64,000 nt of DNA from Perkinsus olseni (Eukaryota; Perkinsozoa; Perkinsida; Perkinsidae), in the NCBI GenBank assembly GCA_013115135.1, contig JABANP010000124.1:61230-125229 (forward strand), in the 5' to 3' direction. The notes under the pieces are model-generated. The model ran no database searches. It worked only from the letters and a program-made list of their open reading frames with translations, and was not told the origin of the DNA. Made by a program: the position numbers and the translations under genes. Positions 26,421-52,814 of this stretch are shown here, one piece after another; positions within the stretch are counted from its first letter, which is position 1, and every line of letters begins with the position of its first letter.

Positions 26421-26444
26421 CCGTACCATTGGTACGGTACCAAT
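26421..26444. repeat. hAT-type excision footprint, 8-mer CGTACCAA
   Basis: The sequence reads CGTACCA-T-TGGTAC-G-GTACCAA. It is two partial copies of CGTACCAA; the left copy's last base and the right copy's first base are each replaced by their complement, and a 6-nt inverted filler lies between. Two odd palindromes are centred at 26429 and 26436. Confidence 0.75.
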
Positions 26445-27097
26445 CAGCAATGAGCCATAACACGAAGCTCTGCTATCAGTGGCCTACATGGGCACAGATA
26501 AATCGCAAGAGTAGGTCTCAACTCAGGGCAAGCTGCCATTTCTCCTCGTCGGTGCCGTAAGTCTACCTCAGCGCGAGTACAATACCCGCGAACAAGGTCA
26601 CAGATACTATCATGACAGTATGACCACTTTTCCGGGCCTTGCGTACTGGAGACTTCAGTCCGAAGTTATATATCTCCAACTTCAACCAGGAGTACCAAGT
26701 GAGACAAAGGTGATCTCTAGCGGTTAAACTTCCTGAAGTAGCCGGTAGGGGCTATATATCATTCTTATATCATTCTTATAACCAGTAAGGGAGAGAGGAA
26801 ATCCCTGTGGACGATTATCACTTCCTTCCGCGTCGCGGAATCCGCAACAACATAAAAACATGACAAAGTCGACGGGAATCGAAGTGGCCTGAGTCTGAAT
26901 GTGTTTTAGAGTTGTTCCACAACATCCGTTCACTCCTCATAAAATCTGAATTCGGATACCCAAATCTGTTTTCCCCTCTGGCCACTGTCCGGTGTCCCCT
27001 GTCCTAATCACTTCAGGAGGGACAAGAACTGCATAGAAGAAGCCGTCATGCTTGAAGCTTCCCTTGGCGGATCGACCCATGAAACTGAAATACTGGC

Positions 27098-27121
27098 ACA
27101 GATACTATCTGTCAGATAGTA
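27098..27121. repeat. hAT-type excision footprint, 8-mer ACAGATAG
   Basis: The sequence reads ACAGATA-C-TATCTG-T-CAGATAG. Palindrome centres are 27105 and 27112; both end bases are complemented as at 26421. Confidence 0.75.
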
Positions 27122-27253
27122 CTGCGCCTCCATGCCCAGCCTCCCAGTCTCAAGGCTTGTGACACGAGCGATAAGAATCTCAGTCCTAGGAATGTTAGGG
27201 GGCGCTAGGAAAAACTCTGATGCTTCTGAATTTGAAACGTGTTTGATGCATGC

Positions 27254-27276
27254 ACCCTGTCACAGGGTCCCTGTGA
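27254..27276. repeat. hAT-type excision footprint, 8-mer ACCCTGTG
   Basis: The sequence reads ACCCTGT-C-ACAGGG-T-CCCTGTG, with palindrome centres 27261 and 27268. Removing the filler plus one copy restores a plain ACCCTGTG. Confidence 0.75.
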
Positions 27277-27434
27277 TAATGACGGTATCACAGGCTGTCG
27301 CAGCAGTACCTTGAGCAAAACGTGAGAGCGCACTGCTCTGCGACAGAGCGTAAGTAGCTAGGCTAACCATTACCGGGCAGAGCCTCCGCCAAAATTTTAC
27401 CAGCAGAAATTAGTCTCGTTTCTCTCCCAATGCT

Positions 27435-27585
27435 ACCTCCCTAAATTGCGCCCTCAGGTCGCAACTGACGAGCGTGAACGTCGCTCGCCCAAATCGCTTC
27501 ACTGTTGGCCATGAATCTCCTAAGACAATCTTCACCGCGCCACAAAATTACACCACCAATTGAGACCACTCGCGTAACTCCACAC
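27435..27585 (-). pseudogene. Decayed duplicate of SAE1 first exon
   Basis: The start region repeats copy A closely, then diverges. Translation gives MANSEAIWASD...HARQLRPEGAI and a stop, clearly derived from the MANSEEISASEEEVYDRQLR start of SAE1. No downstream E1 exons follow, so the duplicate is a fragment. Confidence 0.8.
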
Positions 27586-27624
27586 ACTAAGAGCGGGAAA
27601 TCGTCTCAAATGATACAGGGTAAT

Positions 27625-28664
27625 TTACGTATTCTCCTCTTGCGAAATCTTGACCTCTTGCTTTTCCTCAACAGTCTTCGCATCCTCCTCTTCTTTCTTC
27701 AATATTGCATTCTTCATCTCTGTTTCCAACCTCTGTACATTAGCCTTTTAGCTTGACCAACACCCTGGCTCAATCTAGCCTCCCCAACCACCGCTGTATC
27801 CAATGACTCCCCCCAAGCGACTCTCTGCTCCGGCCAGACTCACCCGGGCTTGTAATACATCACTGAGACGTCTACTTATAGCGTTCGCACTCGTGGTCAT
27901 CTCTCTCGCCTTCTCCTGAGCCCCGTTCAAACATGCATCCAAAATTTCCTTCCCGCAAAGATCGATATCCTCCCCCTTTTTGCGGCGCTCCGCGATGTAC
28001 TTGATGGCGTATCTCGCTCCCGAGCTTGCCACCACCGGATGCACAATGGCACACAGTAAACCCAACAGTCGCATCAGAGGGTTGTCCGAACCAACCAGCG
28101 TATCCTTCACGTGCGCACTGTCGAATTTCTCAAAAGATTCCCTCGCAGCTATCACTAAACATTCCTCAGGTGTTCTCTTCAATTCATCAGCTAACACTAT
28201 AACCCCAGCCGCGCTTCGCTCCGCTAAGGCCGCTCCGATTTTCGTCACTTCTCCTTCAGTAGGAGGTCTAATGGCCGTACCATCTAGTCGCGTTACCCCT
28301 GAAGGTCGTAACGGGATAAAATATGATCATAATAATCATATGCCGCAGAAACACCAACTTCTGACACGCCTAATCTCATTCGACATTCATCATTTTCCAA
28401 AGAATACCAACATTTCGGCGACACTCCCCATCTCCGAACGAGTAAACTCTCACACTTTCCCACGTTACTTCCATCCGGTGTTTTTCCTGTTGCGGCGCAC
28501 TCGCGGCAAACTGCCAGTACATCACCGTGGCCAGATAGGGTTGGAATGCTCACAGCAAATGCCGTACGGTTACCAACTTTCTGCAAATCTTTTCCGCAGC
28601 CCCAGCAGAAATCCACACCTCTGAAACACGCGCACGCCCACGCGATCGATCTCATTTCGACCAT
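27625..28664 (-). CDS. Zinc-finger and coiled-coil protein, unknown function
   Basis: An upstream exon has CWGCGKD and CRECAATGKT, spaced like a C2-C2 zinc-binding module. Next comes a long helical exon (LADELKRTPEECLVIAARES, LLGLLCAIVHPVVASS, YIAERRKKGEDIDLCG). After an intron starting GTGAGTC, a last exon resumes in frame as NVQRLETEMKNAILKKEEE and ends at 27625; it is charged and likely a coiled coil. I do not recognise the family. The start is uncertain: the acceptor-like GTGTTTCAG just inside the first open frame suggests an earlier exon. Confidence 0.65.
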
Positions 28665-28934
28665 CTCATCACTACCTCTTCTTAGTGTCGACTTCCGGGA
28701 CTCTCCTCTCTTCTCTCAGGCTCCCCCCGATGACATCTAGATGCCGCAGCACAGACCAGACCGCAGTGTTGTAGTCCGACGGTTCGAGTGTCCTGACAGA
28801 TAAAGCGACTTGCAAGGTATGCGCGTTGAGCATTGCGCGACGAAACACGCGCGAAGCTACTCTGGATATAGCTCCGGAGAATGGTATCCTTAGAATACCA
28901 TCTCAGTAATAAGTTCACGCTAACGATGCTCAAT

Positions 28935-31900
28935 CAAAATTATTGATGAGGCGTTAATAACGTCATCGTGACCACTCAACTCGGTGGGGTACGAAGTACA
29001 ATCATCATCATACCCAAATTATCATTCGCCCTTCGCTGGTGAAGCTCGAAGAGCAGATCTGCGAAGTCGCCGATGGTAAGAAGTTCTTACTAAGAACGTC
29101 GGCCAAATACGTGGCTTCTCGCAAGGACTTGATACCAGACATCATTTTCTTAACTTCATCTTCGCCTTCGTTGACGCCGGGAACCACATAGGCCCCCATT
29201 TTGGGACCGATGCCGACCCTTAGAAATCTATCTGTCTTGTGGGATCTCAGATTTGGGGCAATTCGTTTCGCGTCCTTTGCAGACACCATGTACTGCAAAT
29301 CGGTTGCAGTTCTTAGCACTTATAGCTCTTCGCACTCGAGTCACTTGACCGAGATATACGACGCCGTGCTTGACCCTAGCAGTTCCACTGTCGATTGCAA
29401 TTGGCGTGACCCTATCCAGTAGTGTCAAGTCGTACATGTTAACTGAGAACGTTTATACCAAAGGGATAACAGAGTATGAAGTTGAATGATTTGACACCCG
29501 TGCTTTGCATAATGCAAATAGCCGGATTCATATCGGACATGACGTAGGCGAAAGAGACAGCAGTCGGCTCCCAAGAGCCGCAAGCAGCCTCGAGACGCAC
29601 TAGCAGTGCACTATGCGTCACGCGTATCGTGCCAGGCAATGCCTGCCACGTCAATGGCTGCCTGCCTGCCAGGCAGAGTTTCTTCATTGAGTCTTCCAGA
29701 CAAGTATCCCAGATCAAAGAGACTGTAGACCACTGAGAACGTCGTTCCGAAGGGTTTGTCTAAATCTTAGTGGCCAACTGGGCTTCGTCTCGGTCGGGTG
29801 CTGCGAGCTAAGCTCGCTGAGCTTCCAATTCCGGCATTCAACAGATGTGGGCGGTGCTTGGGCCGGAGACTTCCATCGAACTCATGCTCATCCATTGGAG
29901 ACGAGAGAAGCAAGATTGTCACTTTGCGCTGCGGACTGCGAGCAAGAAAGCCAGTTACAGTACAAATAACGAGCCTCATTCTCGTGTTATTCTCGGATGC
30001 AGATTTTCGAGTTATAGGTAATTGCTTGCAACGAAAGATTACCATTGTTGGCAATCCCAGTGAGCTAACCGTTGCTATCATTCAGTAACGCCCATCGTTC
30101 ATTCCAGTTTCTTTAGGAAGTTTTCGAGAGGCTACAATTGGCTACAGCGATGATTATCGGCATTCATCCTGGACGAACCATCGTGGCCCAGTCCGACCAC
30201 TGTCCTTCGTAACAGTAGCTGGCACGCAGCAGCTGCCCGAATCGCACTACACTTTCGCTATCTCCCCCGGCCAGGACTTACTCTCCACCGAGTATCTTCC
30301 GCCGTTTGTCGATATACCTCGCAATGCCCTCCTCCCCGACAGCATCATGTCCGAAAATTCTGGAAATGCTGTCCAGCTCGACCTGGCTCACTGACGCCGG
30401 CTGGAACCACGATGGAAAAGTCTTAGCCGTAGCCATCTCGACACCTGAGAAATCTTTCGATTGTGGACCACCAGAAAATATCAAACGTATTTCAATCACA
30501 ATCATCTCTGTTATCCACAAAAGCCGTACAAGGTGAGTTTTCAAGCAACGACAGAAACATGCTCAGACGGCAAGTTCTCTCCTGACCATCAACAGAGGCA
30601 GCTCACCGGAGCCACTAAAATTTCAGTCTGAAATACAGTGTGGGACTGCGTATCCTACCTGAGACAACTTGACCGGATTGGAGTGGAGTGATTCTCGTCA
30701 GTTTCCCAGCATGCAGACTGCTCTGTACGATATGAGGATCAGATCGCGTGAACACAGCGTCGACTTCTAGAGGATCCAGACTCTGCCGAAAATAAAATAG
30801 ACAGCGGCGTTGTTTCGTTCGAGATCGATGCAAGACATAAGAAACTGTCTGGCTAGCCTGTGACAGACCTGTCAAACCCACGACGCAACAGCGATTCGCG
30901 TTCCACTCACTCACCCCTTTTTTCCGAGCCTGCTCTTCTAAAACGGATGCATCCATGAAACTAAAGATGGAAATATTCCAGCCTGAAATCTTCGACTCCA
31001 CTTATATAGATATGGCAAATGAATTCCACGCTACCCATTTCATTTGGCAAAAGAACTTGTCGATGATCGAACTCTATACCGACGGATGCGAGATCCAACG
31101 TCATCTCCAACTCACCTGTCATTCACCTCAGGACTCATAGGAGTTTCCGATGGGGCTCCTTCGGATTTCGTAGTCTTGGCATCCTCAGCCTTTGCTAGGT
31201 CTGCGTTTACTTGACGACCGAAGTCGTGGAGGGCTGAGAGGAAAACGACAATCTTTCCGAGAAACCACGCCGTGCCTCATCGGCCGGCTACAAACCCGCA
31301 ATAATCACTCAATAAACGATCTTGAAAGATTATGGAAGCAAAACGGCTGAGAGAAGCAGGAGGCGAGTGGGAGTTCCAATCAGCACTGAAAGTTCCAGTC
31401 TGGAACCGCTCCTTCACGCTGATTGTCGTAAGCGAACTCAGTGAACCGAACACAGCACTCATCCGCGGAGCACCAAAGGCTCTTGATACTGGATGGTCCA
31501 GATAAGGCAAAGATATCCGTCGACAGCCCGGTCACCCCTCTGCTTTTCGGTGATCGAGAACTCAACGCCCGAGAGGGTGATGGAGCGAGCGATGCTACTT
31601 GTTCCACGCTATGCTCCAGGAGAGTTGGCGCCCAGCAGAAAATTTCATAGGTAAGTATATTATCCCAACTGAAACTCCATATCTTCAGCAATCCAGTGGT
31701 GTAATGGGATATATCCTTCGTTGATTGTGAACGTTGCGAAGAAGTTCTTCGGAAGAACGCTCGGTAACCCAAGCAGCTTGATTGCATCTCGTGAGCTGTA
31801 CCGCTCACTTATCTCATCTTGTAGTCTACGCAGCCTATCCCTGGCGACCTAAGGGCTTAACCGCCAGCATGCTCAGCAGTTATATCTCTCCTTGTTCTCG

Positions 31901-33200
31901 AAGAGCTTGACGACTCTCTACGAACATCTAGAGGTCGACCGAAGTTCAGGAACACCAAACTTCTCGCAGTCCGTCTTGAAGACGCGGCACCAGACTCGGC
32001 CCCCAACGCGGACTCAAGCTCTTCATCATCAGTAGTAGCCAAACACGCAAGATGAGCTTTCAATAGATTTGCAACGGGTCGCGTGAATACGATCTCACGA
32101 TACTTCAACTCTTACTCTCTCACATCAGAGCACTCTCGCAGTCATCCAATCCGTCGACCTTCTGGGTGAGTCGGAAACAAAGCTGTCCCAAGAGGTGCAC
32201 CCAGAGAACGCCACAGCCCGATGTTCGTAAGCGGAATCCCAGTTCTCTTTCCTCTACAACACAATTGCCGCATAGTCATTTTCATACTGGCGAGGAGCCA
32301 CGGTTGGTGTTGTGTGAAACTCGAGGGGGGCTCTCTCTCCCTGGGGAGAGGCATGCGGCATGCCGCAGAAAAGTTCCGCGAAAGCCAGAGGAACAGGGAT
32401 AAGCCCCCACAAACACGGCGCGAACGCATCGTCACGGAACTTCCGTGACGGAAGGCACATTTCCGAACAATGGATGAATCCGATAACTTGAATCGAAGAA
32501 GAGTTTTCATATCGTCCTCAATGAGGATTCCTCATCTTCATCGACGAACCGCGCCCAAGCTCACCTTTCTCAAGCTCTCCTAGCCCCTTCCGCCGCTTCA
32601 AAAAAGACAGGACGTGCTTGCCAATCGGAAGGCTTCGGTCCTCCTTCCCTTTCTGTCCGACCAACAGAGCTTCTTCCAAGGCGGGTGAAGTTCCGTGAAC
32701 CACAGCAGAATCTTTGCCCTTTGTTTCGGTCACCATCAAGCTGACTCGACCTGACATGGAACGCAAGCAATGGTGGCATGGGTTCTCATTCATCTCAACC
32801 GGCGGCTCAACGTTAACTTGGAGTCTAGAGCTCCACGATGCGATCTACCCTAAGGGTAGATGGGGGTAGTACCCTTCCGCTAAACTCGCACTCAGAGGCA
32901 CATCACGGGTGAAACTCCAGTGATTCTTCGACACTCACGAGTTCATAAAGAACGATTTCGCGTTAACTCACCTCCAGTATTGTGGGTGCTCACAAGAGGT
33001 ACCACTGGAGCCCTCCGGAGCAATCTCGGATCTTTTCCTTTTGTTAACTGCCGAGCCTGTCTCGATTTTGATTCGCCCGGAAGGCGCCGAGTCTCCAGAA
33101 GACTTCAACCGGATTTTCCCCATTTCATCTACAACCACAATGAAGACTGAAAAGTACCCTCACCAGGGACCGAACCCGAGACCTCCCAAAACCCAATGTC
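28935..33200 (-). CDS. Unrecognised multi-exon coding region
   Basis: Several segments on the minus strand look coding and have splice signals, but no family could be named. From upstream to downstream they include GRIKIETGSAVNKRKRSEI (about 33100), NENPCHHCLRSMSGRVSLMV with a CxxC pair (32793-32518), YREIVFTRPVANLLKAHL (32108), LGKIVVFLSALHDFGRQVNA (about 31250), IFSFMDASVLEEQARKKG (about 30960), PSWFQPASVSQVELDSISRI (30540-30287), and YMVSAKDAKRIAP with GPKMGAYVVPGVNEGED (about 29300-29030). The PSWFQP segment faintly recalls the start of a SWIRM domain, but the match is too short to claim. It may be more than one gene. Confidence 0.45.
32430..32454. repeat. hAT-type excision footprint, 8-mer CACGGAAG
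   Basis: The sequence reads CACGGAA-C-TTCCGT-G-ACGGAAG, with palindrome centres 32440 (10-bp arms) and 32447 (7-bp arms). The same 14-nt gain as the other footprints is seen. Confidence 0.72.
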
Positions 33201-33285
33201 CATCGTACTGGGAAACCCACTTAAATGTTATGATGAAATTGACGGCCTGAGAGAACCGGAGGGGCAACGGACATGTATTATGATG

Positions 33286-33303
33286 TCGCGCGCCACGAAA
33301 TTC
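33286..33303 (-). repeat. Introner-like core
   Basis: GTCGCGCGCCACGAAATT lies between the unrecognised gene and the ubiquitin protease; whether it is intronic is not known. Confidence 0.65.
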
Positions 33304-33584
33304 GCAAACGAAAGAGTGGATGGCTATCGTACAAGACCAATGATATCAAGTACAAGTATCTCTATGTTTCGTAAAAAGATTCAAAATAGGTCAGAGCTAT
33401 GACTTAATCGATTATCGACTTCAAACACCTTCAGCGGGCTCCAACGCCCAGCTATTTCGCTTGCTGGCCTTTACTGGCCAGTGCTCTGGGGTCTGACACA
33501 AGGAAACCGTCAGTGGACCACTTTTTGCATGAAACCCGAATCCAGTCTACTCGAGTTGAACTTGAGGGCTCAACTGCAGACACG

Positions 33585-33602
33585 TCCCTTCGCGAAGGGA
33601 CA
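33585..33602. repeat. Perfect 18-bp palindrome
   Basis: GTCCCTTCGCGAAGGGAC lies downstream of the ubiquitin protease exons. Confidence 0.8.
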
Positions 33603-34338
33603 CAAGTTACTCGAATTGCACGAGAATGCTCGATCAAACCAATGCTCAATATTTTCACGAAATCGAAGGGGTACAAGCCATAACGTTTTGAGCAAACCCA
33701 GATGAGACGATGACATACATCAAACTCACGTTTTTCTGCACAAACACAGAAAGAAGATTTTCCCCGGTTGAATCCACGTTCCCTCTCCTGAGTTCCCGCA
33801 GTATGAAATCGCCCTACCGAAAGGCTCTGCTTCCGCATAGCGCCGTAACTGTAAATCCGTCCAGTCGGCATGGGTCTCTCTCTTGGACAAGACGCCAATA
33901 AGCCTTCGCGCGCTAGGAAGATACAGTATCTGTCAAATCCTTATGATAATACCGGACTCCTCCATAAACTACCGCAACAGGAAAAATTCTCAGGCTGACA
34001 GGAATTCATGTGCGCCAGTCAGATGAACCCAGCCCGGCCTCGAAATGATACTCAGGCCACGAGGCACATGAACTACGGCAACAGAAAGGCTCTCAGGCGT
34101 GCCGGGGATTCATGCAGGCTGCAAATATATTTTCTTATTCTCAACACAATAAAATTCATGCTACGAGGCACTCATCAAGAGTATGTTACACTCTAATAAG
34201 ATACCACACATCCACCGAGAATAGGGCAAAGCCGGAGAAGGCGGATCGCCTCAGATGATCCAACGTTTCGTATTGTAACACGGCACCCCGAGCCAGTGGC
34301 TCGGAACCACGAACACAAAGGTACGAGAATGAACTTAC

Positions 34339-37594
<3,256 letters not shown>

Positions 37595-37849
37595 TTAAAG
37601 ATACCTTCAGCCACGTTGGAATGCGGCCAGAGTAAGCTAAACCATAGGAGTTTGAAGGAGACGGTGACATGCCAGAGATTTCCAATAGCATTTTAATCAC
37701 ATTATCGACAGCTGCAAGGTCGAGGCCGTCAACAGAAAACACTGGCTGCAGCTCCAGAAGTCGCGAACAAGTAATCATCAGAAACCTCAGCCAGTGAAAC
37801 CAGAACAGTGCAAAAAAGAGTTTCGGTCTTGACCAAGAGAAAGTACCAC

Positions 37850-39689: not shown

Positions 39690-40158
39690 CGCTCTCCTCT
39701 CGAACCCGCCCGTTTAAGACGAAAGGCAGAAGGGCAACAATACGAGATTATAGCCTTGCGAATTAATACGCCTGCCTTCACAAGCGCACATAACGAGCTA
39801 TTTTCGAAGAGCTGGCCCCAAGCGGGAGACAAAGCATCGGGTTGCGTTAACAACAAAATGTTTGTATCGGGAAGAAGAACGACACTTTTTCTCTCTCAAG
39901 AGAAAATCACGATAAAACACACCGGCAAGAGCGGCACGATGGATAGCACCTACGAGTATCTGAATCCCATCCAAGCGTTCCGTCGGATCCGAGATTTTTG
40001 TCGTATCGTGAGGCAAAGTCTGTCGAATATTCATTTTGTATTGCACGACAAAAATGCGGCCGACCCAACAGCGGTCAACCTTGCTGTGAAAGGCATCGCA
40101 TAAGACGACGAAATAGACAATCCCGGGCGGATGAGGATCAGGAAGAGGGGCTCCAGTT

Positions 40159-40664
40159 GCCCCTCACCCGCGAAACCCACTGAGAAGAAGAACGAAAAAG
40201 TTGGTATCGAGAGGTCGATATCTCACTATAACACGACAACCGTGAGAAAGTTGAACTCAACCTTCCTGTGAAGAGCAACGCATAATGCAGACAAACGGTA
40301 GACAGATCCGGGCCCAGTCGATCTACGAACTGAGAATGAGTGATTAGCACCAGCCGCCCTGGCTGCCCCTCACCGGCAACACCCACTGAGAAGAAGAACG
40401 AAAAAGTTGGTATCGAGAGGTCGATATTCCACTATAACACGACAACCGTGAGAAAGTTGAACTCAACCTTCCTGTGAAGAGCAACGCATGATGCAGACAA
40501 ACGGTAGACAGATCCGGGCCCAGTCGATCTACGAACTGAGAATGAGTGATTAGCACCAGCCGCCCTGGCTGCCCCTCACCGGCAACACCCACTGAGAAGA
40601 AGAACGAAAAAGTTGGTATCGAGAGGTCGATATTCCACTATAACACGACAACCGTGAGAAAGTT
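40159..40664. repeat. 206-bp tandem repeat, about 2.5 copies
   Basis: Units start at 40159, 40365 and 40571 with GCCCCTCACC. Units 2 and 3 are nearly identical, unit 1 slightly diverged. The array lies just downstream of the PI4K stop codon (40799). It contains open frames on the minus strand that are a by-product of the repeat. Confidence 0.95.
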
Positions 40665-40798
40665 GCACGAGAAACAAGCGAGCTAAATAGCAACAAGCGG
40701 GTCAAAATGTTAACAAGGAATCCTATACAAGACAACCATCACTAGACTGACTAAAACTAGCTACGATTTGAGAAAGGAGTGGTATGAAATTCACACAT

Positions 40799-42623: not shown

Positions 42624-42639
42624 TCCATTGCCACTTGGC

Positions 42640-45495
42640 AGGAATGATCAATTGATATATGACTCCATCCCATTGAATTGAAATATACACATGGTAGCTT
42701 CCAATGGGACGTTTACCAACCCCAGCACCCCCAAACAAACACACAAACTGTGGCCCCGCAAACAACACAGGGAAATCGATGTGAGCAGTATATGTATGCT
42801 CGCTCATTAGACTGAAGTTTTCTTAAATTGCCTTGCGAGGCACCACCATGCCCTTGAGTATACAGTCGAACGCGTGCAGTACTGCTTAGCATTTTTTGCA
42901 GCGGCGTTGGAGTTTCCAACTTGGAAACGAACGTTCCAACACTGTCAGAGTCACAAATAGAGATGGAATACCGTACTGCTTCTTCACGTCTCTGAGACCG
43001 TATAGTCTGCGCCACCAATACTATCGCCTCATTGGCTTCTCGGCTAGAGGGTTACTCATCTGCGAAAAACTTAGCAGACCTCGCAGCGCCAGTGACAGTG
43101 TTAAACATGTATCTTTGAAACTGGAACATGAGAAGTTGTCGCTTCAATCTGTAATCCACGATATCACTGTTGAACGCTTTCACGTAGAATGCAACGGTCT
43201 CACGACCACTCTGCCCGCCATGGCGTTTAGTGAACACAGGCATGACGACATCATACGGCCCTAAGCGCAGTATGTCGCTGCGAGAGAAAGCATCCTTGAA
43301 GCAAGCATAGTTTCTCTATTGTAGAGGAACCAATCACGAGCGCGGCTCATTCTGCTCGGGGGGATCTTCATCCCACTCATTGTGATACGCTCCACATATG
43401 AATGAAGCTTCTTGCGCTGGCCCAGCGGCGCTGTGCTTGCTGTTCCACTGATGATGGGTCCCATCAGATGAGACCGTGCAAATCATTGTTAACCCACGAA
43501 TGACACCGGCCACATAAAACCCATACATCATTCCTATCAAAATCTTCCATCCGTTGCTTGCTACATGTCGTCAGGTAGCAGCTAATTGCCGTCATAGCAC
43601 ATCATATTGAGATCCGCTGACAATCTGCCATGTATATCAACACCAGCACACATGCCCGTCACAAAAGCAGCCTGGGGACTATCCACGTAAGAAAATTTGG
43701 GAGGACAGCGCTGGAGCCTCCAGCATGGAGGACCACAGACGAAAGCAAGTTTGCTGCTCGTCCGTACGGCGTCCAGGTTGGCCGCCCAAAATTTACCGTC
43801 ACGAAAGTACTGTCCAATTTTCCCGGGATGTTTCTCCCGAGTAAAAACTTCCCTTGCAGTGTTGTGCTTTTCTTACCAGCAAGCGCTCCCTCCGATCTTC
43901 CTCTCCGCGCATCATTCTTGCACCTCCAATTACTATTATTCAAGCTCGTCGTTGACCGTGTCCGCCCGCGACCGCGCGCCTCAAATTCACCGATCGCCCG
44001 TCCAGGGAAACGGTCAGGAGCTGACAACAGGACAAAACAAACTCACTCCATTCGGCAAGAAAATCCTATAAAAAGCGACCATGCCAGGATCGAACCCGCG
44101 ACCTCAACCCAGCCCCATTACAATCCTTCAATGGCTTGTCAGCAGCCAGCACTGCCTCCTCGCATGCCTTCATCATCCTCGCAGCTTCAACATGCATCTC
44201 TTTACCAGTCACCGCGACACCATCACCCACAATCGCTTGATACCTGTAAATGCGTAAAAAATCCCGAACAGTCGCTGGAGAACTCGAGTCAGGCGATCGG
44301 CGCGAATTTCCGGAAGGCAAACCTCCGATTGAACCACCAATACTGGACTCGGCAAAAACTATATCCATTAAAAACAACCCCACCGGGATTCGACCCTGGG
44401 ACCTCCTCGATAGCAGCACGCACCACCCTCCTTACAGCCAATGCATTTTAATTGCCAATCCCATCCACTGCGAAGATTCCTTCAATAGGAACTCCTGAAG
44501 CTCCGGGGAGATCTGAAAGTCACCAGAAAAACAGTCGCTCTAAGATACGAGGTTGAACACAGAAAGATCCCGAAAATCCCAGGAGTCCTGGGCCTTAAGA
44601 TGCTACCCAGCATCACAGGATGCGATCTTACCTCCTTCTTCAACGACGCATAGACAAACTGTGGTAAATAGAAGTCAATACACTCAATCTTCATTTCGTA
44701 CCTGGGGAATCCGAGGTTAACCCACCACTTGCCAGGACGAGCAAAAGATTCCCGTGAGTTCGCGTGTCACTCGTGACGATTCCGACACGACAACGAAAGG
44801 ACAAGCTCCATTCTTAGCGGAGCGAAGCTTTGATTTTCCCCAGCCCAAATATTACAACTCATCAGTCAGGAAATCTTTCCCTCGGCCTAGGTCGAGATCG
44901 TCGAGGTAGCGCATGTGAGAGTATATGTTGGTCATCTGAGAGAAAAACCACATCTGCTCTGCCACGAAATTCCAAGAAAATTTCCAGTCATTCGCGCATA
45001 GGGAACCAAGAATCGAATCTGAGCTAGTTGCATGATCCAAACCAGACGCTGAAAAAAACTCCCTCCCAAATCGCTCCAAGAATTGCTTCCACACGACAAA
45101 CTCAGTCCTGGGAACGACCCTTGAACTCAGTCGAGACAGTCTAGTGAACACCCCCAAATATTTCCTCCCGAAGGGAATCCTGAAATTCTCGCGCGCCCCG
45201 AAATTACATCAGATTCCTCCCTTTCAACCCCTTCGGCAAAATCATCGCACACATCCGAATCACTACTCTCCTCATCCTCAACCTCGACGTCCATCAGAGC
45301 CTTCGAATCTTCACCACCCCGCTTCAGCTTCGGTATGCAGCCTGCCATCCATGCTTTTAGCGGAGCGAAGCAAGTCGGTTTCCATCGAGTATTATTTCTC
45401 GCCGCACGATTTGCAGCGATGATTGCCGAGTGTAGACCGGGCCGCCGTTCATTGGCCGTTTCCGGTTTAGAAACCATGTAAATGCAAGAAGACAA
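42640..45495 (-). CDS. PI4KB: Probable N-terminal exons of the PI4-kinase
   Basis: Segments include KIECIDFYLPQFVYASLKKE (about 44690-44630), which fits the helical lipid-kinase-unique block of PI4K beta, followed by SPELQEFLLKESSQWMGLAI (about 44510-44450). Further upstream lie AEQMWFFSQMTNIYSHMRYL (about 44960-44900) and CFAPLKAWMAGCIPKLKRG with an acidic tail DVEVEDEESSDSD (about 45380-45260). Edges are not fixed; introner-like cores at 44959 and 45188 probably mark introns. Confidence 0.6.
44075..44105 (-). pseudogene. tRNA-like 3' end
   Basis: On the minus strand GGTCGCGGGTTCGATCCTGG is followed by a GGTCGC end and a TTTTT run; no 5' partner acceptor is present. Confidence 0.5.
44959..44972 (-). 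repeat. Partial introner-like core
   Basis: TGCCACGAAATTCC matches the right half of the core, within the PI4K 5' region. Confidence 0.45.
45188..45207 (-). repeat. Introner-like core
   Basis: TCGCGCGCCCCGAAATTAC, one mismatch, between two PI4K 5' exons. Confidence 0.6.
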
Positions 45496-45683
45496 CTGGC
45501 AGAAAATGATCCAAAAATTTCCAACAATTTACCGGAAAAATTGCAAAAGAACCTAGTAGCTACTCAATAGTGTCATCGTAGTTCCGTGCATTCAAGCACG
45601 ATTCAAATCTGACTTCTCTACCCGCTCCACCAAATCGATCACCCGATCGATTATCCCACCAAACACCCCCATCCACAGAAACG

Positions 45684-46975
45684 TCACCATCTCCACCTGC
45701 TAACCTCCACAAACTTATACAGGGAGGCCACAAAGATAATCGTTCCCATAATGAACCACTGCATGGCGTAATTAAAATGGACATGTTCATCACAAAAGAA
45801 GACCATATAATCATGCCGCTTCTTAACGTCAAACGGTGGCCTGAAGGCCCGCCTTGCATTCAGTGGGTCATCCTCGTACCTATTTCATAAGAAAAATTTC
45901 GCATCGCTCCGCCTGCGCCAACATTTCCACTACTCTAGGAACCAAATTCCATTCCAAACAACCTCACTGGAATGCTTTTTGACGGAGAAATTCCCTACAA
46001 AATTCTTTATCGTCTTTCAAAATGCCAGTGTCAAAAATGACACAAACCAAAGACGCTTCGCTCCGCCGAAATAACCTAACGAACCGTTGCGCCTGGAAAC
46101 TCTCCATCCGCTAGAAAATTCAAGTAGAAATGCCATGACCCAAACATCCAGTCCCGACCATTCAACTATCTTACAACAAAATCTCGAAAAAAAATCGCTT
46201 CGCTCCGCCCTATTACCTAACATCAGGCATTAATCAACGCCAATCCAGCCTCCGTGTGATTCCTCGCATCCACACACTCCACCAGCTCATCCGGTACCAA
46301 ATACCGGAAATGCCGCGCCGCTGGATTATTCCGCAGTCTCATCATCGACTTCTTAAATGACATCAACTCTCCAGGAATCAACACTCCCCTCACAGTCACC
46401 CATTCGTTCGTTTCTTTCTTTTCCGTCGAAGCCAACCACTCAAAGGCCAGCATTCCTCGATTCACCAAAATCGTGCTGCCGTCAGCCAAGCGGAGCGGTG
46501 TTACCACCAAATACCCCGGTTTTTTCATCTCGTACGGAGTCTGCGCCGGCCGCGGTCCCACCCAGATCTCCTTAGAGTGATCGTAAACTCCCGAGACTTG
46601 CACTACCCGATACTCGTAGTCCGCCAAATTGTTTTCATTCCACGGAAACGGCGACCCTTTAACTTCAATTCTCGGCATATTCAACCTTTCGTGCCGCTTC
46701 TCAATAATTTCTTTTTTAAATTTCATCCGCCGCAACTGCCAAATCCCAAAACTGAATATCAGGCAAGTGCACATCGTCGCAAAACCAACGATAAAATATT
46801 TCTCGTGCCCTCTAATTCCGTACTGGCGATTTCTGACCACCCTTTTCACTGGCGACGTCACCGGGTCGGAAAGACGTACGACGCGGATCACCACCGAACC
46901 TAGAATGAGAAGACCCTCGAACCCCGCTGAGTCGGAATTTCGTGGCGCGCGAGAAATTTCCAACCCTTCAAACAA
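45684..46975 (-). CDS. SURF1: SURF1, cytochrome c oxidase assembly factor
   Basis: It acts in the mitochondrial inner membrane in heme a insertion and COX1 assembly. The main exon (46899-46223) has the first membrane segment and motif IVGFATMCTCLIFSFGIWQL with RRMKFKKEIIEKRHERL, then YEYRVVQVSGVYDHSKEIWV, GYLVVTPLRLADGSTILVNR and WVTVRGVLIPGE. The C-terminal exon (about 45875-45684) has HVHFNYAMQWFIMGTIIFVA, the second membrane segment. The join between the two lacks a GT donor: after LALINA comes TGA, so a one-base error or a non-canonical donor is implied. The 65-nt intron 46964-46900 contains an introner-like core. The 5' exon with the targeting signal was not found. Confidence 0.92.
46900..46964 (-). 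repeat. 65-nt SURF1 intron with introner-like core
   Basis: The intron begins GTTGGA and ends TTCTAG. It contains GAAATTTCTCGCGCGCCACG then AAATTCC: the core is here a near-palindrome of about 26 bp, suggesting that the complete element has inverted ends. Confidence 0.75.
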
Positions 46976-47187
46976 GCGATTTTTCAGAAATCAGTTGGCC
47001 AGCCCAACTTGAGAAACTGCTAGTCAACCCTAGATGAAGATGGAGATGAAGATAATCCACATCCCTCCCGAGAATTTCGGGAACAATCTACCGTCGAGAA
47101 GAGAGAGGTAGCTTCATTCCAAATGGGGACCGTGCGTTCCGCCTTCCACTAAGCACGGCAAAGAGAATCATCCCGACCCCGCCCCTC

Positions 47188-47651
47188 CCCCTACCCACCC
47201 TTTATTACCCTCGCATTCGTGCGGGTCTATATACCGATGATCCGCCTCGGATAGGATCTCTATGTCCTCTTCCGTGGCAGGATAGATAACCTGACCTGAG
47301 GAGAAAGGTTGGAGAAGGTTAGAAGAGAATCTCCGAGCTGCGCAGTGACCACCTATCGGCCGTCGGCCATAGAGTTGGTGGCTCATATAAAACCCCCATC
47401 CACCGGTTTAACAACGGCGTGCTCCTACTGACCGCCCGGACCCTCCCATCCGTTTTTATTTCCACGATCGTACCATCACAACCGTTACTACCAGTAGTAG
47501 ACTCAGTATACAACGTAGGTGGCAGTGCTTCGCTCCGCTCACTCAATCCACCATTTTCGGGTATTTCCGAATGCTCCAGCTCAGCCAGCGGGTGCTGCCA
47601 GTCGCTCTCTCGACCTGTGGGGATCACCCACGACCTCCGAAGTTCAAACAA
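47188..47651 (-). CDS. Unrecognised coding segments, possible SURF1 5' exons or separate small gene
   Basis: FELRRSWVIPTGRESDWQHP and later SSGQVIYPATEEDIEILSEA followed by RYIDPHECEGNKG look coding on the minus strand and end at a stop near 47188. No family is recognised. Confidence 0.4.
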
Positions 47652-47799
47652 ATTATGCGAAATTGGTAACTAACTTTTAATGCGCGCGATTCCAGGCCTC
47701 GCGGGCAACGAGATCACGCGAAAAATCTCCGATCGATGTATTTCAAGAAATCTGCGTGAATAAAATTTCCCCTTCCGCAAACCACGTCGCACCGTTTTA

Positions 47800-49215
47800 G
47801 ACCTCCCTGGTATCACCTTTAATCCTATCCTTAATGCCTTCCAGAGTCCTTTCATCACTCAGGTCCGCTTCCCGCTCGTTTTTCGCCACCACCGACTTAG
47901 ATTCTTCCTTTAATGTCTCGTCGCTCGCCTGACGACCACGGTGAATAACAAACCGAGCCAACTAACTTCAACCGCTACTCCCACGGAACGGTTCGAAATT
48001 TTTTTGCCAAAGTTAGAATTTCTGACCCGTATTTTACAAAGTAATCAACCATCTCAGAAAAAAAAATCCGCATGAACGCTAAGTCAGAAGCGATGGAAGT
48101 TCAGGAAGTCAGGCACGCATGATATTCCGACAAAATTAGCACTTTGCAAATCGATATTACCCCCGGCTTGAAACGCATGAGCCTTCACCCATATGAAGGG
48201 GCAACCGCAGTATGGGCGACATCGAAGCTTTATTCGGCAACTCTCGACAATATTACACAGACTACAACTTGTCGTCTTGCTCACAATAATACACCATCCG
48301 TTTTCACCAGTCATCATCGGCCAGGACAAATCCGCGCCATGAGGAGTTTAGAAGACTTGAAACACATCGAGCGTCTCCATTCACGATGCCCAAAGGCGAA
48401 GCAGCGACATTATCCGCTTTCATCAGTCATTCTCGGCCACGAGAAATCCAACAGGCGTTAAACACTCAAAGCCTTCCCATTCACGATGCAAAAAGCGAAG
48501 CAGCGACAGTATCCGTTTTCATCAGTCATTATCGGCCACGAGAAATCCAAGAGGCGAAAACACACATACAGTGTTCCCATTCACGGTACAAGGCGCGAAG
48601 CAGTGAGCTTTCCAAGCCATGAACTAAAGCGAATCCCGATTAAGACGATGATCAGGCAATTCGATCTCGTCGCCAGCGCCATCCCCTCCCCGGTACCACC
48701 TCCATCGCTCTCGAGGAGCTGCCCAATTTCTCATCGATAATTTTCGATCTCTGTTCTCGTTTCCACACATCCTGTTTCAACTCCCATGCAGATTTGTAGT
48801 CGTAAGGCACTGTGGCGTTAACGTCGGGATTGTACCGCCAATCGCCACCTGCAATAAGAAAGAGAACCAAGGTCGCTCAATTCGAAGGAACCACTATATC
48901 GGCTTTCAAGATTTCTTCAACCAAGTTAAAAGCCTCGGGCGAACCGATCCCGATTTGCAGCAGGGATGAAGATGCATCAACCCTGCAAAATACGGCAAGA
49001 CTCGGCCATCTCCACACGAACGAAAGGCTCCCGTCTAAACTTTGCGGAAATTCCGATACCGAAAATGTCTTCGCCGTCCAAGACAACAGCCGATCTTTCC
49101 ACTCACTATCCGACGCTCCTTTCTTAGTCGAGTACCGGGCCACTTGCCTCAGCCACAGCGGCCGGATGAACACTCTGGAAGAAACGTGAGCGTGACATAA
49201 AACAAAAGTCATCAA
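47800..49215 (-). CDS. Probable mitochondrial protein, unknown family
   Basis: The first exon starts MTFVLCHAHVSSRVFIRPLW with arginines and ends near ARYSTKKGASDSEWKDRLL, typical of a cleavable mitochondrial presequence. A later exon (about 48860-48700) has WRYNPDVNATVPYDYKSAWE and VWKREQRSKIIDEKL, and another (about 47960-47800) KNEREADLSDERTLEGIKDR. The function is not recognised; connection of the exons is inferred from order and strand. Confidence 0.5.
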
Positions 49216-49388
49216 TACATCTGAGGAACTGACTCAGATCAATTCTCAAGGTCGACTCTAACTCGAAACAGAATAAAAGATACGCTACTGTACAGCGAGA
49301 AACTAGCTGGTGAATGCAATCGTATAGGAAACTAGAATTCGTTGCAACGGTGCAGTGGGGTCAGACCATTTCTGCGAACCTGAATGAT

Positions 49389-49440
49389 GGCAGAATCGAA
49401 CCCACGACCTCTCGCTAGACAGCCTGACCGCTCAACCGTT
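49389..49440 (-). pseudogene. tRNA-like sequence
   Basis: GGTTGAGCGGTCAGGC followed by GGTCGTGGGTTCGATTC resembles A and B boxes at tRNA spacing, but the stems are poor. It abuts the stop codon of the SUMO-like gene. Confidence 0.4.
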
Positions 49441-50696
49441 AGTACATTCTAGGAACTGCATCAATCACATCGCCATCGTTCATTTTCAGGTCATAGGGAC
49501 AATTGTCCTCCGTTACTATCTTATCTCCGTAATAAAACGCATATCGACCAAAGGCCGGATCTGAGACAACCGAACTGAACTATCAAGCCAACACCCTGCA
49601 ACGGAAGCAACCCTCCGCGTTCAGCTCCAGACTGGTGAACAAAGGAAGATGCGCTATCGACATTAATCGACCGACTAAGACGAGCCTAGATCGCCGGCGT
49701 GCCACCCACCGGGACATCACGGCGAAATCGAGTACTGACCGGGTGTTCAACAGACCCCTCCTGAATCCCAAGAACGCTCCCAGGACGGTCTCCTAGGAGC
49801 GCTCAAGAGAGGCAGCAGTCTATTGGACACACCCTAAAATTCAATCCCGCCATTAAAATATAAAAATTCGATTCCTCATACAGTCGGCAGCGAACAATCG
49901 CGAACTGTATTCTTTATATTTCCCTTGCATCATGTCACGCAAGTATGTTTATAAAGAAAAAATCTATTCTCATGAGAAATTAGAGAAGCTTAGTTTCTCG
50001 ATGTATTAGTTTATATTATATATAAACTTGTCACGTAAGTTTATATTTCCCATGCAAGTATGAGACGCCACAGACGTGCTCAGCTACTCAAACCCGGTTA
50101 CCAAAATTCTTCAAAAATCAACTAAAATCGGTCCTCCCCAAACCATCTCTAGCGGGTCCCCATTATTACTGTCAGGAGCTTGCGCCTTGCAAAATATCCG
50201 AAACACCGCCCGGAGTTCCTTCGCGTCACTGACCTTGTACGTCGCCGAGAAGCCTGTGGCCTCGTTGCGCAGCGTTAGTTCTATCCGCAATGCCTGGTCG
50301 GGCGCCTTACCTGCAAAAATGAGGCAAAATTCAAAAATACCCAACGGTAAGACTCTCTAGACCGGTGACAGCTTGTCCTAGGGCATCTATCATCCCCAAT
50401 AGACAACAGGGATCATCGACCCCTCCCCTCTTAGGCGGCACTCCTGACCCCTCGCCTGTGACACCAACGCGAGTAAAGCGGCTATCGACAGCCTTTACTA
50501 GGCAAACAGACTAACAGCAGTGGTCAAACTCGACCTCTGTGTAGCACCCAAAGGAGCTCAAACACGACCGGAGGCGAACTGGCGTAAGTGAATCCCTTCC
50601 CAGCAGTATGATATTACCTCTGGGCACCGGCTTGCTAGTGTTGAATAAATGCCGAGAGACCTCGGGGTTCATATACATGAGGCCGATACCCGCCAT
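49439..50696 (-). CDS. Divergent SUMO-like (Rad60-SLD type) domain protein
   Basis: Exon 1 (50696-50618) encodes MAGIGLMYMNPEVSRHLFNT. Exon 2 (50310-50144) joins in phase and gives DQALRIELTLRNEATGFSAT and KELRAVFRIFCKA, which fits the first strands and helix of SUMO folds (V-x-D, K-x-H-F-K, L-x-K-L-x-x-x-Y-C). A third exon (about 49575-49439) gives GRYAFYYGDKIVTEDN and YDLKMNDGDVIDAVPRMY, matching the RFLFDG...MEDGDVIDV end of SUMO. There is no GG processing site, so it is probably an SLD-type protein (Rad60/Esc2/NIP45 class) or a SUMO that lost its end. The phase from exon 2 to 3 is not resolved, so the model is incomplete. SAE1 in the same window is a functional relative. Confidence 0.6.
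49850..50065. other. AT-rich stretch in the SUMO-like gene intron
   Basis: TATATTTCC/CATGCAAGTATG motifs repeat at about 49917-49950 and 50041-50065. Nothing else is recognised. Confidence 0.6.
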
Positions 50697-51339
50697 GATG
50701 GCAGTGGAAGTCGGTAAACAACAACTACAGGACGTGGCATGATGGGAATGGTCGACGCGCCTTGCCTTGAGTCAAGACGCCACAATAGACTAACTATGAA
50801 ACTCTGTAGCGATTTTGGACTTGGCTTTAATTGCGAAACGTGGTCTCAGAACCGATTCTGAGTTTTAGCCTATGTTCTTTGAACAGCACTATTAAGAATG
50901 AGAATTGGCACTTGAACCGCTCTGCCGTCAGTCGTTGGCCACACGCTCGGGCCTCTCGTCTTGGCAAGCAAATGCAATTGATGGGAATGAGTATATACTT
51001 GAATTCTGTAGGGGTTTTCAATAACCCTCCCCTTAGCGCTCCCAAGATAGAATTTAACGTGTGAAAGAGGATCATGGAAGGGTTCTTGAAACTCAGGAGA
51101 GATCTATTGAACACTCGGTGCGCGTCGTTACTCTCGATAACCAAACCAAACATTGGCTTTCGCATAACGATGTTGAAGATCTAAGTCTGTACTTGTCTCT
51201 ACCCGTCTCTTTCCTGTCAGTTGAAAACGCATCGCTCGTCGTCAATTCGAGTCCATTCAATGGCTTACGGTAACACTCTGAGCGGCCATCATAGCGACTT
51301 GGACGGCGCATGTTACCCATCTCCTCTCTCATCCCGATG

Positions 51340-51366
51340 TCCGAGGTTCGATCCCTGCGGGTGTCA
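51340..51366 (+). pseudogene. tRNA T-arm fragment upstream of the NmrA gene
   Basis: CCGAGGTTCGATCCCTGCGG lies 25-45 nt before an introner-like core (51389-51406), so both repeat types are adjacent here. Confidence 0.45.
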
Positions 51367-51388
51367 AATTGACCTTTTATTTTTGACA

Positions 51389-51406
51389 TATTTCGTGGCG
51401 CGTGAC
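51389..51406 (+). repeat. Introner-like core upstream of the NmrA gene
   Basis: ATATTTCGTGGCGCGTGAC, nearly exact, about 385 bp before the NmrA start codon; possibly in a 5' UTR intron. Confidence 0.65.
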
Positions 51407-51969
51407 AGATACTCATTGGCTTGACCATACCGCAACATGAGCAAGTAAGCGGCTTAATTTAAGCCTGAACCGTCAAGCCTCCCCCTTGCGGCTCACCCAG
51501 CGTTCGAGGAGACCTCAACAAGAAGAAAACCAAGTAAAAGGCCATTGTTACCACGTGTGTCTGCGTGCTACTGTGCACGCAGGCACATGTAGCTTTCCCA
51601 ATGCCGCCTCTCACTGGTGTGTCGCAGGGCGAGCAGCCCTACCGTCAAAAGCTTGGCCTTTGGATAACCGATATCCTTGATAACCCTAATCCTATGCTCT
51701 AGTCAGTGTACTGCGGTAGAGCTTTGGAAGCTTCTCGATTTGAAAGGCTCATCCCGCACCATTCGTAAGCTTATTTCCATTCTTCCACCATGTCCTCCAA
51801 GACGTTGGCTGTTATCGGTGCCACCGGGTTGTTCGGGAAGTCCATCAGCCTCGCCCCGCTCAAGCTAGGACACAAAGTGATCGCTGTTACTCGCAGCGTC
51901 TCCGACAAAGCGGCAATTGCCGCCGAACTGGAGAAGGCCGGTGCTCACGTAACCTCCTACCCATCGGAC

Positions 51970-52000
51970 GTTCACGTTTTCATCGCCTTTGTGGTCTCAG
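51970..52000 (+). other. 31-nt intron in the NmrA gene
   Basis: GT to AG removal joins TCG GAC to ATG GTC in frame, whereas reading through would shift the frame (31 is not a multiple of three). Confidence 0.75.
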
Positions 52001-52349
52001 ATGGTCGAAGTGCCAGACCAGACAGACGAGGATGGCTTGGCTTCGGTCTTCCGAGAGCACCACGTAGACACAGTCATCTGCGCAGTGAATGGCGCCGCCA
52101 TCAAAGCGGTCGAAGAGCACATCATTAACGCTGCCGTCGAAAGTGGCATCGTCACGCGCTTTTGCCCCGACGAGTTTGGCGTTCACACAGGAGCCATTCC
52201 GTGGGGCCTGGCCGAGCTCTTCGACGACAAGAAAGAGACGCTCGAGCTACTACACAAGTCCGGCCTGCAGTGGACCGCCATCTTCGTCGGCGCGTTGTTC
52301 GACTACTTCCTCCCGTCGCTAAAGAACGGTGGCGGGGTCGTCAAGACGT

Positions 52350-52419
52350 TTGGTAACAACTTGTTACCAGCGAAGAATACAGCGTCCTTGTTACTAACAA
52401 GGACGCTGTATTCTTCGCT
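52350..52419. repeat. hAT-type excision footprint with long filler, 8-mer GTAACAAG
   Basis: The left copy GTAACAA-C and the right copy C-TAACAAG flank a 33-nt filler. The filler is 9 nt inverted from the left flank plus 24 nt inverted from the right flank, giving a perfect 25-bp-arm palindrome centred at 52394. The net gain is 41 nt inside coding sequence. Confidence 0.8.
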
Positions 52420-52492
52420 AACAGCCTGCAAGACATTGGCATGATGATAGCCCTTGCCGCAGTTGACGAGCGTACAGTCAACAAGTATGTCC

Positions 52493-52516
52493 AGTTTCAA
52501 CTTGAAACTTTCAAGT
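52493..52516. repeat. hAT-type excision footprint, 8-mer GTTTCAAG
   Basis: The sequence reads GTTTCAA-C-TTGAAA-C-TTTCAAG with centres 52501 and 52508. The 14-nt gain shifts the frame; removal restores codons for VQFQVNPTT. Confidence 0.85.
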
Positions 52517-52814
52517 GAACCCAACCACTCAGAGTAAGAATCTCGAAATGGTCCGTGAGATATGGCCGAAGCACGACTTCCCCGAAAGACACCTCGACGA
52601 GGCCGAGCTCATCCGTCTTATGCGCGACGACAAGAACAACCGCTTCTGGTTTGTTGTTTACGCCATCTATTGCCTTGGCCGAATGAACAACTTGGATTTC
52701 CCCGACACCATCCTGGGCAACGAGATTCTCCCTGCTGACTACAATATCACCAGTATCAGAGAGTGTCTCTCGAGCCCTTCATTCGTGTTCCCTGATGGTG
52801 TTCCTGAAAACTAA

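What the first reader, a model, noticed from the sequence alone, without database searches (positions are those of the whole stretch)
26421..52522. Six footprints obey one rule: recent hAT-like activity with no element in view
Seen at 26421, 27098, 27254, 32430, 52350 and 52493: an 8-mer in two copies, the inner base of each copy replaced by its complement, and an inverted filler. In five the two palindrome centres are exactly 7 nt apart (net gain 14 nt). The left centre base predicts the last base of the right copy in all six, an internal check that chance palindromes would not meet. No hAT transposase or terminal repeats were recognised in this window, so the element must act from elsewhere. 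This would be a genome-wide mutational signature.
Basis: partly seen in the sequence, partly recalled or inferred. Interest (0 to 1): 0.9.

Follow-up and report, generated by a model that had tools for sequence, protein, structure and literature searches.

The report
Uniform jumping-gene scars litter Perkinsus genome
The genome of what is likely the clam parasite Perkinsus olseni is strewn with one precisely built 22-base scar, about one per 2 kb in perfect form in the stretches examined, which was likely left each time a hAT-type jumping gene was cut out and the two hairpin-capped ends were, by inference, opened and re-joined through their shared 8-base target sequence.

Summary
The exact rule N1-7, n8, n7-n2, n1, N2-8 (22 nt built from one 8-mer) occurs 13 times in the window (expected 0.0002) and 114 times in 254 kb of the same genome (expected 0.001), with 114 different 8-mers. 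No other duplication length or hairpin offset gives a comparable signal of its own. Paralogous copies without the scar hold the bare 8-mer (net gain 14 nt). The 8-mers follow a palindromic preference, (C/G)T(C/T)NN(A/G)A(C/G), like that recalled for hAT targets, and the genome encodes hAT transposases. One claim is wrong: an element is in view. A 947-bp non-autonomous element with hAT-like ends and a perfect 8-bp duplication lies at 61608-62554. Best reading: hAT excision capped both flanks with hairpins, nicked 1 nt outside the element. These were opened some way from the tip, and the inverted 8-mers annealed in register, giving mostly the same product. The chemistry is that known from Ac/Ds. 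New, as far as my searches show, are the dominance of one outcome (about 80-95% of detectable hairpin scars, by measure) and the scale: roughly one scar per 150-180 substitutions.

The parts
26422..26443 (.). exact 22-nt scar, inferred 8-mer target CGTACCAA
27098..27119 (.). exact 22-nt scar, target ACAGATAG
27254..27275 (.). exact 22-nt scar, target ACCCTGTG
32433..32454 (.). exact 22-nt scar, target CACGGAAG
52353..52401 (.). out-of-register scar, target GTAACAAG: centres at 52360 and 52394, filler made of two unequal hairpin arms (9 and up to 25 nt), so a hairpin was likely opened far from its tip
52494..52515 (.). exact 22-nt scar, target GTTTCAAG
25340..25361 (.). exact 22-nt scar, target GTTCCACC (missed)
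29076..29097 (.). exact 22-nt scar, target GTAAGAAC (missed)
31737..31758 (.). exact 22-nt scar, target CGAAGAAC (missed)
57315..57336 (.). exact 22-nt scar, target GTCGCTGC (missed)
57407..57428 (.). exact 22-nt scar, target CCCTCTTC (missed)
62110..62131 (.). exact 22-nt scar, target GTCTATAC, inside the resident element; of five other copies compared, all are 14 nt shorter here, four with the bare GTCTATAC and one (L043) with ATCTATAC
63293..63314 (.). exact 22-nt scar, target ATTGGGTA (missed)
10372..10402 (.). out-of-register scar, target GGTACCAT, centres 16 nt apart, filler explained by the two arms (4 and 15 nt)
62299..62320 (.). scar with 1 mutation, target TGCTCTTC, present at the same place in all six compared copies of the element (so likely older than their dispersal)
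62366..62387 (.). decayed scar, target GTATCCAC, present in five of six compared element copies; the sixth (L042) has the bare 8-mer
61608..62554 (.). resident 947-bp non-autonomous element with hAT-like inverted ends (CAGGGTGGCTGA...); at least 8 further near-full-length copies at 90-97% identity elsewhere in the genome
61600..61607 (.). left 8-bp target duplication AGAAGGCC of the element
62555..62562 (.). right 8-bp target duplication AGAAGGCC of the element

Best explanation
The 22-nt pattern is the scar that likely remains where a hAT-type transposon, flanked by its 8-bp target duplication, was cut out. Steps. (1) Insertion duplicated an 8-mer N1-N8 (the empty sites show the single 8-mer; resident elements show the duplication). 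(2) Excision likely nicked each flank one base outside the element and sealed each flank into a hairpin, so the left flank ended N1-N7 then n8 n7 n6..., and the right flank began ...n3 n2 n1 then N2-N8 (inferred from the odd-centred palindromes and the two base checks, and matching the published Ac/Ds hairpin model). (3) The hairpins were likely opened at varied distances from the tip, up to about 25 nt, leaving single-stranded tails (inferred from rare out-of-register scars with arms of 1-25 nt). (4) Both tails carry the same 8-mer in inverted sense, so they would anneal with each other in register. Trimming and ligation would then give N1-7 n8 n7-n2 n1 N2-8, net +14 nt, largely whatever the nick positions. 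That would explain why one product dominates.
For: Single-cell specificity: over target lengths 5-12 and offsets 0-4, only length 8 with offset 1 has a strong signal of its own, 114 against 0.001 expected; the 14 hits at length 10, offset 3 are all length-8 scars with arms longer by one base. 114 distinct 8-mers and distinct flanks, so independent events. Palindromic target preference, T at position 2 in 53 of 114 and A at position 7 in 44 of 114. Empty sites: insertion lengths between paralogous copies peak at 14 (14 listed events, about 10 independent); 12 of 14 hold the 22-mer with at most 3 mismatches, and the other two are copies of one decayed scar. At 62110 the window copy has the scar and five other element copies lack it. 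hAT transposases in the genome; three elements with perfect 8-bp duplications and near-perfect inverted ends in 254 kb. Centres 7 nt apart in 140 pairs against 3-14 at each other distance from 1 to 39; the minimal form (distance 1) is at background, 5. Published Ac/Ds footprints are centred on the complement of the base next to the element (PMC5873905, passages).
Against: No excision was observed, and no element was caught at one of these sites. Scars far outnumber intact elements found (256 non-overlapping with at most 2 changes against 3 elements by strict criteria in 254 kb), so the responsible family is not pinned down. In yeast and Arabidopsis the same chemistry gives varied products (PMC5873905), so a repair bias must be assumed here; the tools gave no clear cause (one partial Ku match, one DRMBL match and nine DNA polymerase A matches). 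After masking scars with up to 3 changes, single-base-centred palindromes with arms of 7 or more still number 86 against 30-38 for loops of 0, 2 and 4, and loops of 3 and 5 also keep an excess (85 and 86), so other products or decayed scars exist. Many low-similarity paralogue pairs align too poorly to show a clean 14-nt gap and were not counted.
Confidence: 0.86

Rival explanations
1. Replication template switching (snap-back slippage) makes small alternating inverted copies without any transposon.
For: It too yields palindromes with short spacers, and single long odd-centred palindromes exist.
Against: Such slippage has no fixed unit: only unit length 8 with 1-nt centres has a strong signal of its own. 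The copied 8-mers show a palindromic target preference. Both end-base checks hold in 114 of 130.
Confidence: 0.03
2. Scars of another hairpin-forming transposon or recombinase (Transib/RAG-like, Mutator-like) rather than hAT.
For: RAG/Transib also hairpin the flank (recalled); Mutator-like enzymes share residues with hAT (PMC5225508, passages).
Against: Recalled target lengths are 5 bp (Transib) and 9-11 bp (Mutator), and the RAG hairpin has no 1-nt offset; lengths 5 and 9-11 and offset 0 give no comparable signal once the extended length-8 scars are set aside. Muta1 in yeast with its duplications mostly leaves precise excision. hAT genes and 8-bp-duplicated elements are present. I did not search for other transposase families.
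Confidence: 0.06
3. Programmed elimination: a domesticated hAT enzyme removes germline segments and the sequenced genome is the processed one.
For: Very many scars, few resident elements.
Against: Scars carry graded mutations (114, 72, 86, 128 hits with 0, 1, 2, 3 changes against 0-55 in decoys), and one is present in all six compared element copies, so they look inherited and old rather than remade each generation.
Confidence: 0.03

Closest known systems
Ac/Ds (hAT) excision footprints in plants, budding yeast and Candida albicans
   Same: Palindromes centred on the complement of the base next to the element; P-nucleotide insertions; hairpin opening and end joining with microhomology (PMC5873905, passages read).
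   Different: There the products are diverse (28 types among 128 colonies in C. albicans, still less varied than in yeast and Arabidopsis; arms up to 20 nt in yeast, per that paper). Here one 22-nt product dominates, and tens of thousands of copies are extrapolated genome-wide.
P nucleotides at V(D)J coding joints (recalled, no call)
   Same: Hairpin-capped flanks opened away from the tip leave palindromic additions.
   Different: No 1-nt offset, no duplicated 8-mer shared by both ends, hence no in-register annealing.
DNA-transposon excision sites in rice species comparison
   Same: Genome-scale census of excision repair outcomes (PMC4423477, passages read).
   Different: There 94 excisions were mostly deletions and/or filler (8 left just the two duplications), and the part of its table I saw lists no hAT (DTA) excision in O. 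sativa.
Introner elements of the dinoflagellate Amoebophrya
   Same: Genome-wide small repeat-bearing insertions in a related lineage (PMC7789003, passages read).
   Different: Those are spliced introns with 3-5 nt direct repeats, not 14-nt net scars.

Membership tests
hAT excision footprint | derived from an 8-bp target duplication | tested here: met
   only length 8 has a strong signal of its own; empty sites hold the single 8-mer
hAT excision footprint | flank hairpin with 1-nt offset (odd palindrome centred on complement of terminal base) | tested here: met
   offset 1: 114; offsets 0, 2, 3 at length 8: 0, 0, 0
hAT excision footprint | hAT-like target preference nTnnnnAn (recalled) | tested here: met
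   position 2 T 53/114, position 7 A 44/114 and G 35/114; a preference, not a rule
hAT excision footprint | hAT transposase in the genome | tested here: met
   21 PF05699 matches; 666-aa frame with PF14291 and PF05699
hAT excision footprint | element seen leaving such a scar | not testable with these tools
   needs strains or live excision
non-autonomous hAT element (61608-62554) | 8-bp duplication plus terminal inverted repeats of CAGGG type | tested here: met
   three of five fetched copies (L041, L042, L044) also have perfect 8-bp duplications, L040 and L043 each show only one clear end
non-autonomous hAT element (61608-62554) | mobile: copies elsewhere end at the element borders | tested here: met
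   8 further near-full copies starting at query 7-21 and ending at 955-956 of 963
non-autonomous hAT element (61608-62554) | mobilised by a hAT transposase of this genome | not tested
   ends of the matching autonomous family not identified; the one coding element with clear ends has others (CATAGGCGCC)
Transib/RAG-type footprint | 5-bp duplication, hairpin without offset (recalled) | tested here: not met
   length 5 offset 0: 3 against 0.24, one of them next to a length-8 scar

The most novel reading that the evidence does not exclude
In this parasite the target duplication itself acts as the repair template: the two inverted 8-mers on opened hairpins anneal in register, turning transposon excision into a predominantly fixed 14-nt insertion. 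This has been running so long that it is a leading insertion process of the genome, about one scar per 150-180 substitutions and some 25,000 perfect and 60,000 recognisable scars in all.
Probability: 0.6. Interest if true: 0.8.

Novelty: new variant of a known kind. Interest (0 to 1): 0.72.

Why it matters
Excision scars are usually studied by the dozen or hundred in reporters, and come out varied. Here each scar is a self-describing fossil that names its 8-mer target, the cut offset and the repair route, and its mutations date it. That gives thousands of natural repair events in a lineage near the dinoflagellates, whose break repair is little studied (my impression, not searched), a clock for transposon activity, and a frameshifting mutation source for strain comparison. 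It also makes a mechanistic idea testable: that a target duplication can serve as a built-in sticky end for hairpin-capped breaks.

Tried and rejected
Second signature at length 10, offset 3 (14 hits): rejected, all are length-8 scars whose arms happen to extend by one base. Weaker cells of the same matrix: length 7 offset 3 (13 against 3.9), length 9 offset 3 (3 against 0.015), length 5 offset 0 (3 against 0.24), length 5 offset 1 (11 against 3.9), length 6 offset 2 (8 against 3.9), length 11 offset 4 (1 against 0.001), length 7 offset 1 (1 against 0.015); of those listed hit by hit, about half lie on or beside length-8 scars, and after excluding such neighbourhoods a wider matrix (lengths 4-25, offsets up to 12; only cells with at least 2 hits and over 5 times expectation printed) lists three cells, of 2 hits each against 0.24. 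Absence of classical end joining as the cause of uniformity: not supported; a partial Ku exon (28.3 bits, cut-off 25) and a DRMBL nuclease match were found. Depletion in long open frames (1 of 186 scars in stop-to-stop frames of 300 codons or more, 18.1 expected): partly circular, because a 14-nt insertion breaks the frame, so not used as proof of selection. Masking all patterns with up to 5 changes removes palindromes by construction and was not used. Genome-wide search for short elements with CAGGGTGGCYG ends 40-70 nt apart: 0. The 138-bp element of L021 has one other complete copy (97%, duplicated flanks included, so likely a segmental copy) plus partial matches. The coding element L021:3022-5981 has no other long match. 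Clustering of scars at under 100 nt (51 gaps against 29.8 expected) fits local hopping, but regional preference is not excluded. Relaxed element criteria listed 14 candidates, most with poor inner ends and likely chance. Literature: nine searches, of which I saw the listings, at most 25 papers each, and passages of four papers, showed no report of this uniform scar or of hAT scars in Perkinsus; Yu et al. 2004 (PMC321453) is not held. On re-check I lowered the share of in-register scars from 'nine in ten' to '80-95% by measure', because each such scar gives two palindromes and a one-sided scar only one; odds left unchanged.
Full report
WHAT WAS CHECKED. The window is G000:C29:61230-125229 of a 61.48-Mb assembly in 968 contigs. 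A SURF1 exon in the window matches a Perkinsus olseni protein at 100% identity over 90% of its length, and the 666-aa hAT frame at L019:3877-5877 matches a P. olseni protein at 93% over 76%, so the genome is very probably P. olseni (Perkinsozoa) or a very close relative.

THE RULE IS REAL. In the window it occurs 13 times without a mismatch (expected 0.0002). Ten unit lengths (4-13) were tried there; the others give 18 at length 4 (15.6 expected), 1 at length 5 (1.0 expected), 1 at length 7 (0.004 expected) and 0 elsewhere. In 254 kb (window plus 19 stretches of 10 kb, L009-L027, 12 contigs in all) it occurs 114 times. Ten of the stretches (L013-L022) were chosen at or beside hAT gene matches; they hold 52 in 100 kb and the other 154 kb hold 62 (per-locus list), so the density does not depend strongly on that choice. 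It varies from 0 to 14 per 10-kb stretch. The 114 scars have 114 different 8-mers and flanks.

SPECIFICITY. A matrix of unit length 5-12 against hairpin offset 0-4 has one strong cell of its own, length 8 offset 1: 114 against 0.001. The 14 hits at length 10 offset 3 are all the same scars with arms longer by one base; a few other cells are mildly raised (listed under Tried and rejected), and after excluding the neighbourhood of length-8 scars a wider matrix lists only three cells with 2 hits each against 0.24. Two decoys with the same number of constraints give 0 and 0 perfect hits. Of 130 sites with a 6-mer in three alternating copies around single-base centres, 114 satisfy both outer base checks, 15 one and 1 neither.

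EMPTY SITES. Between paralogous stretches with at least 80% ungapped identity (142 alignments, most pairs seen in both directions), the lengths of insertions with clean flanks were tallied without reference to the rule: lengths 1-2 dominate (64 and 28), lengths 3-13 have 1-6 each, length 14 has 14, length 15 has 1, then six more at 21-27 nt that do not fit the rule (139 events in all). Of the 14 events of 14 nt, 12 contain the 22-mer with at most 3 mismatches; the other two are copies of one decayed scar. Removing copies of the same insertion leaves about 10 independent events. The clearest is 62110: the window copy of a transposon has GTCTATA-G-TATAGA-C-TCTATAC; five other copies are 14 nt shorter there, four with the bare GTCTATAC and one (L043) with ATCTATAC. 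At 62366, five copies have a decayed scar and L042 the bare GTATCCAC. I fetched five of the eight further near-full copies, so the other three are untested.

WHAT MAKES IT. The 8-mers prefer C or G at positions 1 and 8, T at 2 and A at 7, roughly symmetrical about the centre; this resembles the hAT preference nTnnnnAn (recalled). hAT genes are present: 21 matches to the dimerisation domain over the family cut-off, a 666-aa frame with PF14291 and PF05699, and a coding element at L021:3022-5981 with ends CATAGGCGCCCAA and an 8-bp duplication GCGGTCGG. The window itself contains a non-coding element, 61608-62554, with ends CAGGGTGGCTGA and duplication AGAAGGCC; eight more near-full copies at 90-97% identity stop at or near its borders, and three of the five fetched have their own perfect 8-bp duplications. 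So the statement that no element is in view is wrong. Which family made the scars is open: scars outnumber elements found by strict criteria in the same 254 kb by about 80 to 1 (256 non-overlapping scars with at most 2 changes, of which about 9 are decoy-level, against 3 elements). Under cut-and-paste movement every departure adds a scar while the element count stays the same, so this is expected for a long-lived activity (inference).

HOW IT LIKELY WORKS. Published Ac/Ds work describes palindromic insertions centred on the complement of the base next to the element, explained by hairpin formation, opening and end joining, with many different products (PMC5873905, passages). That a hAT enzyme nicks one base outside the element and seals the flank is recalled from Hermes biochemistry. 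Here distance 7 between centres accounts for 140 pairs, 114 of them with a perfect filler, against 3-14 pairs at each other distance from 1 to 39 (mean 5.2 at 41-100), and the short form with distance 1 is at background. In-register annealing of the two inverted 8-mers would explain this: opened hairpins expose n8..n1 on one tail and its complement on the other, an 8-nt sticky end that exists because both flanks carry the target duplication. The final sequence is then largely independent of where each hairpin was opened. Rare out-of-register joints show the tails directly: seven joints at distances 9-34, one each, have fillers fully explained by the two arms, which range from 1 to 25 nt; at 52353-52401 they are 9 and up to 25. 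How uniform is the product? By fully explained fillers at distance 7 or more, 114 of 121. By palindromes: after masking scars with up to 3 changes, the excess of single-base-centred palindromes with arms of 7 or more falls from about 385 to about 50 over the even-loop level (421 and 86 against about 36); since an in-register scar gives two palindromes and a one-sided scar one, this means roughly 80%. Footprints with large deletions and precise excisions would escape these tests; the indel tally shows no other clear class, but it is small. Loops of 3 and 5 also keep an excess after masking, which I have not explained.

AGE AND RATE. Corrected for decoys, scars with 0, 1, 2 and 3 changes number 114, 71.5, 77 and 81 in 254 kb (overlapping hits at one place can count twice, and classes 4 and 5 are too noisy to use). 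Constant production with constant decay predicts equal numbers per class; the flat tail fits this and the excess at zero suggests recent activity. About 77 per class means one scar per 254000/22/77, about 150 substitutions. Independently, 33 paralogous alignments hold 1469 substitutions and 8 gaps of 14 nt, about 184 per gap (alignments overlap in part, and some gaps may be the same event). A scar with one change at 62299 is present in all six compared copies of the element. Extrapolation from the 154 kb not chosen for hAT genes gives about 25,000 perfect scars, and from all 254 kb about 60,000 with at most 2 changes; both assume the sample is representative.

LIMITS. No strain comparison, no direct excision, 0.4% of the genome scanned. 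Repair genes do not explain the uniformity: one partial Ku match, one DRMBL (SNM1/Pso2/Artemis family) match, and nine DNA polymerase A matches (eight over the cut-off) were found.

Noticed in passing
window 61600-62562: Non-autonomous hAT-like element, itself carrying scars of other excisions (62110, 62299, 62366), i.e. elements inserted into elements and left again; copy L041 appears to have two adjacent scars where L044 has one.
   Followed up: yes
window 8872-9312: Tandem array of a 148-bp unit carrying tRNA-Ser(aga) genes (two called); three tRNA-Arg(cct) copies lie at 11264, 12974 and 19183.
   Followed up: no
window 40158-40665: 206-bp tandem repeat, 2.5 copies at 98% match, next to a PI3/PI4-kinase exon.
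   Followed up: no
L021:379-532: 138-bp element with CAGGGTGGCCG ends and 8-bp duplication GAGAAGTC; a second complete copy includes the same duplications (C288:24924-25077), close to a copy of the window's element.
   Followed up: partly
L016:9666, L027:5699, window 58934, L014:1082: Single odd-centred perfect palindromes with arms of 11-17 nt and no in-register partner, perhaps one-sided hairpin scars.
   Followed up: no
window and L009-L027: Palindromes with 3- and 5-base loops stay in excess over even loops after masking the 22-nt scars; unexplained, perhaps decayed centres.
   Followed up: no
L009-L027 and window: Scars sit closer together than random placement gives (51 gaps under 100 nt, 29.8 expected), as local hopping would predict.
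   Followed up: partly
L019:702-3233: Open frame of 843 aa that looks by eye like part of a retroelement gag-pol (CCHC motif, protease, start of reverse transcriptase) beside the hAT gene; not searched.
   Followed up: no
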